Shown one piece after another: positions 5,034 through 45,180 of a stretch of DNA of 45,401 nucleotides. Every line of letters starts with the position of its first letter. Within the stretch, counting starts at the first letter, position 1. The DNA lies in NCBI GenBank assembly GCA_946803715.1, contig CAMPET010000047.1, positions 228,435 to 273,835 on the forward strand, in the 5' to 3' direction. Made by a program: the position numbers and the translations under genes. The DNA comes from Beroe ovata. Lineage: Eukaryota; Ctenophora; Nuda; Beroida; Beroidae. Under the pieces are notes generated by a model that had not been told where the DNA came from, made no database searches, and was given only the letters and a program-made list of their open reading frames with translations.

Positions 5034-10413
<5,380 letters not shown>

Positions 10414-34459: not shown

Positions 34460-37400
34460 ATGCAATCATCATCTGGTGTGCGTCCCAACTTCGTTTGTAC
34501 GGTCTGTCACCAGCAGTATGACGCCTTGTACGATTTCAAGCAGCACTTAGAGAGTCAGGAGCATGAACTTGCCTACGGGATCCGACTGAAGAATTCCAGT
34601 GTATGTGATGTTACTGCGCGGCGCGACCGCAGAGAGTGCTTACACGCTGCGCGCGTCATTTTGAAAATAGAGTGGGAGGCGAATGATGTGTGCACAGTTT
34701 GTTTGGAATAGTTTCCTGAAAATCGTAATGCTTCAGGTTGGTTCTTACTTCTGCAACTGCTGTCACATCTGTGTCAATACGCTGCTTATCTGGAAAAGCC
34801 ATATCATGGGAATGAAACACATGAAAATTGCCTGTAAGTCACGTCTAATATCTGTGGACAAAGCTCCTATATTTACCTTGGCTCCATTTGAATTATGATG
34901 AGTTAACCTCAACCTAACTTTCAGGCGCATTTTCTTTGGCGTACTCTAACTTTGACTTTGACAAGCCGGCTCGAGTATCTGATGTCGGAGTGCTCGATCA
35001 GAATGTCGAAATACCCGAATCACTACAACGATCTACAGGAAAACCAAGCACTCACGTGAGTCTATATCGAATATCGAGAGAATGAGTGAGATATTAAATC
35101 GATAACTAAGTGAGAATAAATCGATAACTAAGTGAGAATTAAGGGATCTATGGCTTGATGAAAATTGAAAACTGTCTTCAGATGCGGACTATGGACTCGT
35201 CAAGCTATGTAATAGGCGTGACGGACATTGATTACAATGGACCTGGTCTTTACCACTGTCGGCTTTGTGACGATCCTTTCAACGAGGGAAACAAAACGCA
35301 GCATCTGACTTCCACTCGCCACCGAGTTAATGTGAGCTTTGTCTGCATCATAGCGAAAATACGACGAAAACCGTCATCGATTATTGATTGTTCCCATGTT
35401 TATCGCAATTTAATGTTCAGCATTCTTTTTAGGTCTTCAGAAGGTGGGATATGGCATTGTATGAGGAGGCGATGAATGTTAAAGACGTAGGAAAGCCCGA
35501 ATTCTCAGAGAGATGCGAATCTATCGCAGCAGATATCTTCCCCGTGGAACAAAATGTTCTTAACAAGGTGAGATCGGGAGTTATTTCTAGAGAAAGGGTT
35601 GACCACCTCTATGATATGATCAATAGATGATATATCATATTTCACTACCAGTTGGAATTGTTCTGTGAATAACTGCTTGATCCAATATATATCTTGGGAT
35701 TGAGGAAGTATATTGTTTCCTGGAAACCAAACAAAGCAATGCCTCAATTATCCCCTCTTCAAAGATATGATCTCATTATCTAATTGCAATATTGCGATAT
35801 ATAGCCGGTAAAATTCTTTCTTATTCGTACCCGGGGTGGCGGAATTGGTAGACGCACCAGCTTCAAGCGCTGGCGCCGCAAGGCGTGCAGGTTCAAGTCC
35901 TGCCCCCGGTATTTTTTTTTCCAAAATTTCCCCAGATTTGACTTTGATGCTGTTTGCTATCAGGAACAGACGCTGCTGTTCAGGAGAATTATGGGAATTG
36001 ATGCTACTCTGGATGAGAGATTCGCAGAGCAGAAGAACCCAGCTCCTGCGAGACCCGGGTATCAACCCGGTATGGGGGCACGACAGCCCCAGGTAAACGC
36101 TCTGCCATCTCACTTGCTTTACTTGCTGATCACGAGATTTCGATTTCTCAAAAATTCATATTTGCAGAACAACCCTTCATATAATGATGGACAGCGACCT
36201 ATGCAGCCAGAAAGACAGATGCAGCCAGAAAGACAGATGCAGCCAGTAAGACAGATGCAGCCAGAAAGACCGATGCCGCAAAACCGCGGACGTGGAATGG
36301 GGCGGGGTCAGCATGGTGGACCCGGTATGGCTCGGGGTCAACCCGGCGTGAGAAGAGGTTTATCACATGGTGATATGAGAGGACCGCCTGATAGAGGAAA
36401 CCACTCCCAGCAGCAGCTACAGCTGCAGGAGCAGCGATATGATCAGAGGAGAGGAGGACCACCTCTTGGGAGGGGAGGTCATGTCCATTACAGGTGGGAA
36501 ATACCAGACTTAGTGAGATGATTGTGTTTTAGAAAACACTTGGGATGATTACTCTCCATTCATCAGGGGTGGTCACAGTGGGATGCAGAATATGGATAGA
36601 GGGATGCAGAAGCCTGGGAACAAGCAAAAAGAGGTTTGAAACTCATATTCCTCTATTTTGAGTGACTTCAAAATGTTTCATGACTATGTGCTCTCTATAA
36701 CCAAAACATATTAGGTTGTGCTAAAGATAAACTCGGATGTTAAGTGTGACATAGCTCTGGAATGTGTACGGGCTCTGATGCAGAACATGAACATCTACCA
36801 GGCCGAGACTAGGGATAATTCATTTACCAGAGTAGAAGTTCTGAAAGCCCAAATACTTTTTGATGAGGTTTGAAATCAGTTCATCACATGAATGAGTCCT
36901 AGATAACTAGTTCTTCTCTGATCTTACTCCTGTTTCAGATCATCAAGATGGCGTATCCACCATCAGCTAAATCAGCTGTAACAGATGACAACTATATCAC
37001 CATGTTCCAAAACGGACGATTGACGCTCAAACGAAAGGAGGAGATCTTGCAGCACAAAAAGGATAATTCCCTTGGGAATAAGGACGAAATGAAAGCACCC
37101 GCATCGAAGGAGCCTAAGCATCATAACCGGGGTTCGAAAGAGATACCCCCAGCTAAAGGTGAACCCATAAAATCCATTGTACCACCAACGGAACCCATGC
37201 TACCTCCACCGATTCCTGGAGTTATGCCAGCGATGCCCCCGCTAATGCCACCCGAGATAAGAGCAGGAGGGCCGATGATGCCAGCAGATCTCAGGGGAGG
37301 ACAGATGCTGCCACCACCTGATTTCAGAGGAGCGCCTATGATGCCACCTCCCCAAGCCATGCTGGATCCCTGGGGAAGACCAATCATGGTCCCACGAGAC

Positions 37401-38075
37401 ATGCACGGTGTTCCGTTCCTCCCTCCCCCTGATTTCTACTCTTCCAGGAGGAAAGATGGTAGGGAGTCCTCCCCAAGAAAGAGAACTCCTTCCCCACCGG
37501 CAGCTGGATCAGATGGTCCACGTGACACGAAGAGGAATAGATCCAGGACACCGGACAGAGTTGTCACTCTCAAGGAGAGACTTGGTGCCAAACCTGACAC
37601 GGACACTAGGACATCACGGTCCCCGACGAGGAAAGCATCTCCGAGAAGATCTCAAAGTCGGCGATCCTCTGACAGGAAATCACCTCCTACAAGAAGGTCG
37701 CCAATTAGAATGTCACCAAACAGAAAGTCTCCTGGTAGGAAGTCTCCTATTGCTAAATCTGCGAGTAAGAAGTCTCCGAGTAGGAAAAAGTCGCCTGTTA
37801 GGAAGTCGCCTGTCAGGAAGTCGCCTGTCAGGAAGTCGCCTGTTAGGAAGTCGCCTGGTAGGAAGTCGCCTGGTAGGAAGTCACCTGGTAGGAAGTCTCC
37901 AAAGAGGTCTCCTCGACGCGGATCCAAGACAACTAAGAAACGGTCCCGATCCCCAGATAAACGAAACAGAAGAAGTCCACCCCGAAACAACGAAATGGAA
38001 ACGATGGAAGATGGAGATGGAACTGTCTTCTTGGATGAGGGAGCTTATGCTGAGTTGCTCAATTCACTGGGATAG
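34460..38075 (+). CDS. Three-zinc-finger (U1/matrin-type) RS-rich protein ZF-B, paralogue of ZF-A
   Basis: Ten in-frame exons: 34460-34600, 34737-34833, 34925-35055, 35182-35331, 35433-35567, 35964-36092, 36168-36493, 36567-36633, 36715-36867, 36939-38075; about 821 residues. Fingers: CTVCHQ...HLESQEH, CNCCHI...HIMGMKH and CRLCDD...HLTSTRH. Finger 2 shares IWKSH with ZF-A, and the lead-in to finger 3 (IGVTDIDYNGPGLYHC) parallels IVGTNCLKINGPNHFHC. Next come a MQPERQ hexapeptide repeat, Arg-Gly-rich tracts, a helical block, a Pro/Met-rich block and an RS-like C-terminus with tandem KSPVRKSP and KSPGRKSP units. It is probably a nuclear RNA-processing factor. Intron 35568-35963 contains a tRNA gene. 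Exact family not recognised. Confidence 0.8.
35830..35911 (+). tRNA. tRNA-Leu (anticodon CAA) of bacterial type, in a ZF-B intron
   Basis: A class II cloverleaf. Acceptor stem 35830-35836 with 35904-35910, six of seven pairs (first pair C/T mismatched). D stem gcg/cgc with loop GAATTGGTAGA. Anticodon stem ccagc/gctgg around TTCAAGC (anticodon CAA at 35864-35866). Variable arm cgcc-gcaa-ggcg and T arm gcagg-TTCAAGT-cctgc complete it. The D arm (GGCGGAATTGGTAGACGC) and GNRA-capped variable arm are typical of bacteria, not of eukaryotic cytosolic tRNA-Leu. No CCA is encoded; base 73 (A) is followed by nine T, a good Pol III terminator. Internal A box (TGGCGGAATTGG) and B box (GGTTCAAGTCC) are present, so transcription by the host is possible. 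Confidence 0.9.
36190..36275 (+). repeat. 18-bp coding repeat (MQPERQ)
   Basis: Four copies of atgcagccagaaagacag-like units lie within ZF-B exon 7. The period is a multiple of three, so the frame is kept. Confidence 0.9.
37735..37905 (+). repeat. 15-bp coding repeat (KSPVR/KSPGR)
   Basis: About ten units of aagtcgcctgttagg lie in the last ZF-B exon, giving repeated Ser-Pro sites flanked by Arg/Lys. Confidence 0.9.
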
Positions 38076-44441: not shown

Positions 44442-44700
44442 GTGAGCCGTGAGTAGTGTCTCGTATGCCTGTCTCTAAAAATATGGTGAGTAGTGTCTCT
44501 TGCTAACTTGTTTCTAAAGATGTGGTGAGTAGTGTCTCTTGCTAACTTGTCTCTAGAAATATGGTGAGTTGTGTTTCGCGTGCCTGTCTCTAAAAATATG
44601 GTGAGTTGTGTCTCTTGCAAACTTGTCTCTAGAGATATGGTGAGTAGTGTCTCGTATGCTTGTCTCTAGAGATATGGTGATAGTGTCTCGTATGCTTGGT
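44425..44700. repeat. 37-39-bp tandem array containing a WAVE 5' splice site, block 1
   Basis: Eight or so units resembling tgtctctaaaaatatggtgagtagtgtctcgtatgc. The first unit includes the end of WAVE exon 9 and its GTGAGC donor; later units carry GTGAGT. Confidence 0.95.
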
Positions 44701-44890
44701 GAGTTGTCAACTGTAGTACATCTGTTACATCTTGTCGTTACAGTTCTATCAAAGTAGTTGGATCTCTCCCCATGGCCCTCTCTCCCCATAGCAGTGCATT
44801 ATTATATATAATAAGGAGATCTGCAAATCTAAATCAGAGAGAGCTGTTTTTGTGATTAGCTTGCATCCTCCACCATCCTCTTTGTGTGTG
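44701..44890. repeat. Unique spacer of duplicated block, copy 1
   Basis: It runs from gagttgtcaactg to cctctttgtgtgtg and recurs with small changes at 45178-45401. Confidence 0.9.
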
Positions 44891-44892
44891 TG

Positions 44893-45180
44893 NGTGGTGA
44901 GTAGTGTCTCGTATGCGTGTCTCTAGGTATATGGTGAGTAGTGTCTCGAGTGCGTGACTCGAGAGATGTGGTGAGTAGTGTCTCGCGTACATGTCTCTAG
45001 AGATGTGGTGAGTAGTGTCTCGTATGCGTGTCTCTAGAAATATGGTGAGTAGTGTCTCGAGTGCGTGACTCTAGAGATGTGGTGAGTTGTGTTTCGCGTG
45101 CATGTCTCTTGAAATGCAAATTCGTTTCTAAAGATGTGGTGAGTAGTGTCCTGTATGCGTGTCTCTAGAGATGTAGTGAG
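44893..45180. repeat. 37-39-bp tandem array, block 2
   Basis: A second set of about eight units with the same ggtgagtagtgtctcg core, starting after an unresolved base at 44892. Confidence 0.95.

What the first reader, a model, noticed from the sequence alone, without database searches (positions are those of the whole stretch)
35830..35911. Bacterial-type tRNA-Leu(CAA) inside an intron of a metazoan gene
The cloverleaf is almost intact, with a bacterial D arm and GNRA-capped variable arm, yet the flanks are ordinary host intron. No CCA is encoded, and a nine-T run plus A and B boxes would suit Pol III. This suggests transfer of a single tRNA gene from a bacterium or organelle. If the host is a ctenophore, whose mitochondrial genomes are known to lack tRNA genes, a nuclear bacterial-type tRNA would be of special interest. 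That last step is speculation; the C/T mismatch at pair 1-72 may mean it is decaying.
Basis: partly seen in the sequence, partly recalled or inferred. Interest (0 to 1): 0.75.

Follow-up and report, generated by a model that had tools for sequence, protein, structure and literature searches.

The report
Bacterial tRNA gene in comb-jelly intron
A single, nearly intact transfer-RNA gene of bacterial type sits inside an intron of what is probably a comb-jelly nuclear gene; it looks like a small piece of bacterial or phage DNA captured by the animal, most likely a passenger, though the sequence does not rule out that it is transcribed.

Summary
35830-35911 (+) is a tRNA-Leu(CAA). A model of 22 bacterial/viral tRNA-Leu, built without it, scores it 94.1 bits; 17 held-out ones score 71.5-100.7, the host's own tRNA-Leu 50.5-54.2. 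A tree places it with bacteria (95/96). It is single-copy, in a 396-base GT-AG intron whose neighbouring exons join in frame. All stems are intact except C1/U72; no CCA is encoded; A and B boxes match consensus; the window's only run of nine T on either strand follows A73 directly. No donor was found: best 91% over bases 6-72, 83% full length. The host is an animal, probably a ctenophore (partly recalled); three intron-bearing tRNA-Leu(CAA) of its own make this one redundant. The only PF13603 match is a ValRS, so no bacterial-type LeuRS was seen: against, not excluding, a mitochondrial role. Best reading: micro-insertion of a bacterial or phage tRNA gene, transcribable but probably a passenger. 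The bolder reading, a domesticated tRNA, is kept at 9%.

The parts
35830..35911 (+). bacterial-type tRNA-Leu, anticodon CAA (35864-35866), G37, A73, no encoded CCA, C1/U72 mismatch
   Evidence: sequence read
35912..35920 (+). run of nine T directly after A73: possible Pol III (or bacterial) terminator; the only run of nine or more T on either strand of the window
35837..35847 (+). A-box match TGGCGGAATTG
35890..35900 (+). B-box match GGTTCAAGTCC
35568..35963 (+). host intron (GT...AG, 396 bases) that holds the tRNA, same strand as the gene; no second match in the assembly (bases 35569-35963 searched)
   Evidence: borders inferred from sequence, no transcript seen
35433..35567 (+). inferred upstream exon of the host gene
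   Evidence: joins in frame with 35183-35331 and the downstream exon over 137 codons without a stop
35964..36092 (+). inferred downstream exon of the host gene (ends CAG, next intron begins GT at 36093)

Best explanation
A short piece of bacterial (or phage) DNA carrying one tRNA-Leu gene was captured in an intron of an animal nuclear gene, probably in a ctenophore, most likely as filler during repair of a break. It has kept its cloverleaf because the event is fairly recent or because the unit is still transcribed. Its internal A and B boxes and the T9 run would let Pol III make a precursor that the host could trim and give a CCA end; the spliceosome removes the intron, so the gene around it is not harmed. 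The host already has tRNA-Leu(CAA), so the copy is most likely a passenger without a needed function. Shown: bacterial type, single copy, intact stems but for one pair, host redundancy. Inferred: the intron (from sequence), capture by repair, recency, Pol III transcription, passenger status.
For: Bacterial identity: 94.1 bits with model R1 against 71.5-100.7 for 17 held-out bacterial or viral tRNA-Leu (several are close kin of model sequences), 50.5-54.2 for the host tRNA-Leu matches and at most 55.3 for the tRNAs in 17 other host loci; tree split 95/96. One match in 77.8 Mb; 11 other places within 3 mismatches of the D arm are not tRNAs. It lies inside a contig of 385,005 bases that carries RPB2 and eS1 upstream in the window and the inferred exons on both sides of the intron. 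Redundant: 9 host tRNA-Leu genes found (AAG 3, CAA 3 with predicted introns, CAG 1, TAG 2).
Against: No donor: best full-length identity 83% (70 of 84; 69 of 84 with the same anticodon, L173), best local 91% over bases 6-72; this allows an old event under constraint as well as an unsampled donor. Practically all proteobacterial tRNA genes template CCA (PMC5143459, passages) and this one does not, so CCA was lost or the donor is of another group. No read-level check of the assembly was possible. No flanking bacterial DNA was recognised and no target-site duplication (longest shared word between 50 bases upstream and 52 downstream is 6 bases), so the capture route is unseen.
Confidence: 0.62

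Rival explanations
1. Domesticated tRNA: the inserted gene is transcribed by Pol III, charged by the host's cytosolic LeuRS and used in cytosolic translation or as a source of tRNA fragments.
For: Intact stems but for one pair, A73, A and B boxes matching consensus, T9 run at the exact 3' end. G37 next to CAA, as in the host's own tRNA-Leu(CAA) (3 of 3) and unlike the bacterial tRNA-Leu(CAA) of A1, where 6 of 7 have A37 (the exception, with G37, is the viral contig L032).
Against: Redundant with three host tRNA-Leu(CAA) genes; C1/U72 mismatch; no expression data; G37 is also normal in bacterial tRNA-Leu(CAG), from which one change at 36 would give CAA.
Confidence: 0.1
2. Nuclear gene for a tRNA imported into the tRNA-less ctenophore mitochondrion.
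For: [quoted passage not shown]
Against: The only PF13603 match in the genome is a ValRS, so no bacterial-type LeuRS was seen; a review says no case is known of a mitochondrial tRNA gene moved to the nucleus and targeted back (PMC9839398, passage). Limits: the search is exon-wise and had no positive control in this genome (it found no LeuRS of either type), and the larger model TIGR00396 did not complete.
Confidence: 0.03
3. Assembly artefact: a bacterial read joined into the intron.
For: No reads were available; the window holds two N (6986, 44893) and a local duplication near 6161-7150, so the assembly is not flawless.
Against: A misjoin would bring bacterial flanks, but the insert has tRNA borders and flanks of 33-34% GC; the assembly shows no second match to the query, hence no visible bacterial contig with a similar tRNA.
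Confidence: 0.1
4. Phage donor rather than a bacterial chromosome.
For: IMG/VR contig L211 (306 kb record) has a tRNA-Leu(CAA) with GCCGGGG acceptor, G1.U72 and no CCA; L032 (279 kb record) has a tRNA-Leu(CAA) with G37, the only viral contig that matches the D-arm, TTCAAG and T-arm pattern of the window.
Against: L211's gene shares 64 positions with the window, below the 70 of bacterial ones; the 33-base pattern with CAR found 0 viral contigs.
Confidence: 0.12
5. Nuclear copy of a mitochondrial or plastid tRNA.
For: Such copies are common in nuclear genomes (recalled).
Against: 67% GC; animal mitochondria use UAA and UAG tRNA-Leu (recalled); ctenophore mtDNA has no tRNA genes (PMC4558845, passage). 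No organelle sequence was compared.
Confidence: 0.03

Closest known systems
Bacterial tRNA-Leu (class II, long variable arm)
   Same: D arm GGCGGAATTGGTAGACGC, variable arm, T arm, A73; 94.1 bits with the bacterial model
   Different: C1 instead of G1, CAA with G37, no encoded CCA, resident in an animal intron
tRNA genes acquired by plant mitochondria by horizontal transfer, e.g. fungal-derived tRNAs in orchid mitochondria (PMC11827590, title and start of abstract in the listing)
   Same: foreign tRNA gene kept in another lineage
   Different: there in mitochondrial DNA, with expression and aminoacylation stated in the title; here nuclear, intronic, no expression data
Small bacterial DNA insertions in animal nuclear genomes (HGT / filler DNA; recalled)
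   Same: short foreign segment inside host DNA, host gene apparently intact
   Different: cargo is one complete structured RNA gene, without visible bacterial flanks
Host tRNA-Leu(CAA) of this genome (L203, L204, L209)
   Same: anticodon CAA, G37, A73
   Different: eukaryotic D arm GGCCGAGTGGTCTAAGGCG, predicted intron; 52 identical in 86 aligned columns for L203

Membership tests
tRNA (RF00005) | score above the Rfam gathering cut-off of 29 bits | tested here: met
   49.7 bits
bacterial-type tRNA-Leu | scores within the range of bacterial tRNA-Leu not used in the model and above host tRNA-Leu | tested here: met
   94.1 against 71.5-100.7 (17 held-out) and 50.5-54.2 (host)
bacterial-type tRNA-Leu | all model pairs standard | tested here: not met
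   pair 1-72 is C/U; the alignment marks no other non-standard pair
bacterial-type tRNA-Leu | A37 next to a UUG-reading anticodon, as in most bacterial tRNA-Leu(CAA) | tested here: not met
   G37 here; A37 in 6 of 7 tRNA-Leu(CAA) of A1 and in 3 of 3 viral ones
bacterial-type tRNA-Leu | encoded CCA, usual in Proteobacteria | tested here: not met
   A73 followed by T9; not a rule for all phyla (PMC5143459, passages)
horizontal transfer into a nuclear genome | identified donor lineage with high identity | tested here: inconclusive
   9, 398, 385 and 48 Pseudomonadota genomes, overlapping samples; best full-length 83%; other phyla could not be reached this way
horizontal transfer into a nuclear genome | reads or PCR span both borders in clean tissue | not testable with these tools
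   no reads held
functional nuclear tRNA gene | Pol III A and B boxes and T-run terminator | tested here: met
   sequence matches only
functional nuclear tRNA gene | expression and aminoacylation | not testable with these tools
   no RNA data

The most novel reading that the evidence does not exclude
A bacterial-type tRNA-Leu, acquired horizontally, has been domesticated by an animal nucleus: it is transcribed by Pol III from an intron, has become eukaryote-like at position 37, and is charged and used by the host, in the cytosol or, less likely, in the tRNA-less mitochondrion of a ctenophore.
Probability: 0.09. Interest if true: 0.88.

Novelty: new variant of a known kind. Interest (0 to 1): 0.5.

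Why it matters
If confirmed at read level, it would be a clean case of a single bacterial tRNA gene entering an animal nucleus in a form that the host's Pol III could use at once, because its internal boxes already fit the Pol III consensus. It would let one test whether a foreign tRNA is expressed, processed and charged in an animal, in a group (if the host is a ctenophore) whose mitochondria have lost all their tRNA genes. If it is only a passenger, it still is a marker of bacterial DNA capture and a warning for automatic tRNA annotation.

Tried and rejected
Viral patterns: 1, 0, 6 and 3 contigs; the three gave no tRNA-Leu by ARAGORN. My gapped pattern (0 contigs) was badly made: its gap of 25-45 excludes the window's own spacing of 22, so it shows nothing; with a gap of 15-40 it matches the window and one viral contig, L032, already known.

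Rejected: more copies in the genome; the flanking intron as part of a repeat; the PF13603 match as a bacterial LeuRS, since NCBIfam names its exons ValRS first. COX1 was not found in the assembly, so mitochondrial tRNAs could not be looked at. The search of the host genome with part of a viral tRNA cluster found nothing but also missed the window's own tRNA, so it says nothing about other bacterial-type tRNAs. The generic tRNA search listed 50 matches (63 of 2384 candidates scored) and did not list the window's tRNA, so it is no inventory. The host gene has no firm Pfam match (DUF5463, 24.9 bits, below its cut-off of 30).

Host: eS1 and MUL1-like proteins have their closest relatives in unnamed contigs; the only one of the 11 best with a source's own label is EukProt 'sb/3467773/', 52% over 80%, a label style that I recall as Pleurobrachia bachei; papers gave no confirmation. 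Assembly size 77.8 Mb and window GC 42.1% are near Beroe ovata (91.6 Mb, 41.97%; PMC11184263, passages), which is weak support.

Full report
What is there. ARAGORN finds a single tRNA in the window, tRNA-Leu(CAA) at 35830-35911 +, and Rfam's tRNA model matches the same 82 bases with 49.7 bits. Acceptor, D, anticodon, variable and T stems pair except position 1 with 72 (C/U), as the alignments and the fold show. The fold energy alone is not unusual against shuffles (19 of 200 at least as low); the case rests on the family models.

Which lineage. I collected tRNA-Leu genes of bacteria and viral contigs, aligned 22 of them without the window (A1) and built a covariance model (R1). In that alignment 98.9% of cells pair and 15 of 24 pairs show changes on both sides, so the structure is sound. 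R1 scores the window 94.1 bits. Seventeen tRNA-Leu that were not in the model score 71.5 to 100.7; the other tRNAs in those loci score at most 69. Several of the seventeen are close kin of model sequences. The host's own tRNA-Leu matches score 50.5-54.2, and the tRNAs of 17 other host loci at most 55.3 (17 of the 30 loci were given). A tree of 16 sequences splits the five host ones from bacteria plus window with support 95/96; the bootstrap had not settled, and the window's place among the bacteria is unresolved.

Place in the genome. The window lies in a contig of 385,005 bases of a 77.8 Mb assembly. The tRNA with 30 and 19 flanking bases, and the whole intron, have one match each in the assembly, themselves. 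The intron 35568-35963 has GT and AG borders, and three inferred exons (35183-35331, 35433-35567, 35964-36092) read open in one frame for 137 codons; no transcript was available, so the exons are inferred. Flanks are 34% and 33% GC, the tRNA 67%. A 19-base D-arm pattern with up to 3 mismatches gives 12 places against 3 for the reversed control, but the 11 other than the window are not tRNAs by ARAGORN and score at most 10.5 bits with R1. Whether other kinds of bacterial-type tRNA occur in the genome was not settled (one search was uninformative).

Pol III features. A box and B box match the consensus, and the only run of nine T in 45.4 kb on either strand starts at the base after A73. These would suit Pol III. 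Boxes of this kind are expected in bacterial tRNAs too (recalled), and a T run may equally be a bacterial terminator; transcription is inferred, not shown.

Donor. Best local match: 91% over bases 6-72, with a two-base gap in the variable arm, in alphaproteobacterial tRNA-Leu(CAG). Best full-length: the same gene, e.g. L152, 70 identical of 84; L173, tRNA-Leu(CAA), 69 of 84. The anticodon arm is like tRNA-Leu(CAG) with 36 changed to A, while the acceptor GCCGGGG occurs in bacterial and viral tRNA-Leu(CAA) (L175, L180, L211). U72 occurs as G1.U72 in 3 of 22 sequences, so only G1 to C need have changed there. Practically all proteobacterial tRNA genes template CCA (PMC5143459, passages), and this copy does not: either CCA was lost or the donor lies in a group that I could not reach. 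Whole-genome searches were limited to Pseudomonadota, because no handle in other phyla was obtained.

Host. eS1 and the MUL1-like protein show an animal whose near relatives are in unnamed contigs. P0131 of EukProt, 52% identical over 80%, bears a label style that I recall as Pleurobrachia bachei, a ctenophore; the two named vertebrate proteins are at 28-30%. Assembly size and GC resemble Beroe ovata (PMC11184263, passages). I hold 'ctenophore' at about 80%. The 18S search did not complete.

Use. Nine host tRNA-Leu genes were found by one pattern, among them three tRNA-Leu(CAA) with predicted introns; the pattern may miss others. So decoding of UUG does not need the foreign gene. PMC4558845 (passages; section 14) reports loss of all mitochondrial tRNAs in ctenophores and retention of only two mitochondrial synthetases in Cnidaria and Ctenophora. 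In this genome the only PF13603 match, 25.3 bits, lies in a gene whose exons match ValRS best, so no bacterial-type LeuRS was seen. That test is weak: PF13603 also rings in archaeal control genomes, it is searched exon by exon, it found no LeuRS of either type here, and the larger model did not complete. PMC9839398 (passage) states that no case is known of a mitochondrial tRNA gene transferred to the nucleus and targeted back. My literature searches (of many hits only 20 of 61, 7 of 7, 15 of 166, 12 of 1,674, 13 of 13, 25 of 33 and 1 of 1 were listed) showed no paper whose title or abstract start reports a bacterial tRNA gene in an animal nuclear intron; this is a limited search of open papers, not proof of absence.

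Judgement. A real bacterial-type tRNA gene in what reads as a host intron; the most economical account is a micro-insertion by repair, without needed function. Function is not excluded: the copy is structurally sound, carries G37 as the host's own tRNA-Leu(CAA) do, and ends on a T9 run. An artefact is not excluded either, since no reads were available.

Noticed in passing
window 6161-6288 and 7023-7150: 128-base duplication, 98% identical, inside the RPB2 gene on the minus strand, with a 22-base minisatellite (6288-6446), a TG run (6889-6948) and one N (6986) between the copies. Either a recent partial duplication or an unresolved haplotype.
   Followed up: partly
window 35748-36155 (-) and 35805-36521 (+): Both strands of the tRNA lie in long open frames; the plus frame runs through the tRNA into the downstream exon in phase.
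   Followed up: no
window 44449-45116: Two blocks of minisatellite with related 37-39-base units (GTGAGTAGTGTCTC...), with one N at 44893, the base before the second block.
   Followed up: no
window 37725-37900: 15-base coding repeat giving an RKSPVRKSPG-type tail, RS-like, in an open frame downstream of the tRNA.
   Followed up: no
L032 8908-8987: A 279 kb IMG/VR record carries a tRNA-Leu(CAA) with G37, amid 24 tRNAs in the 11.6 kb fetched; the other bacterial and viral tRNA-Leu(CAA) compared here have A37.
   Followed up: no
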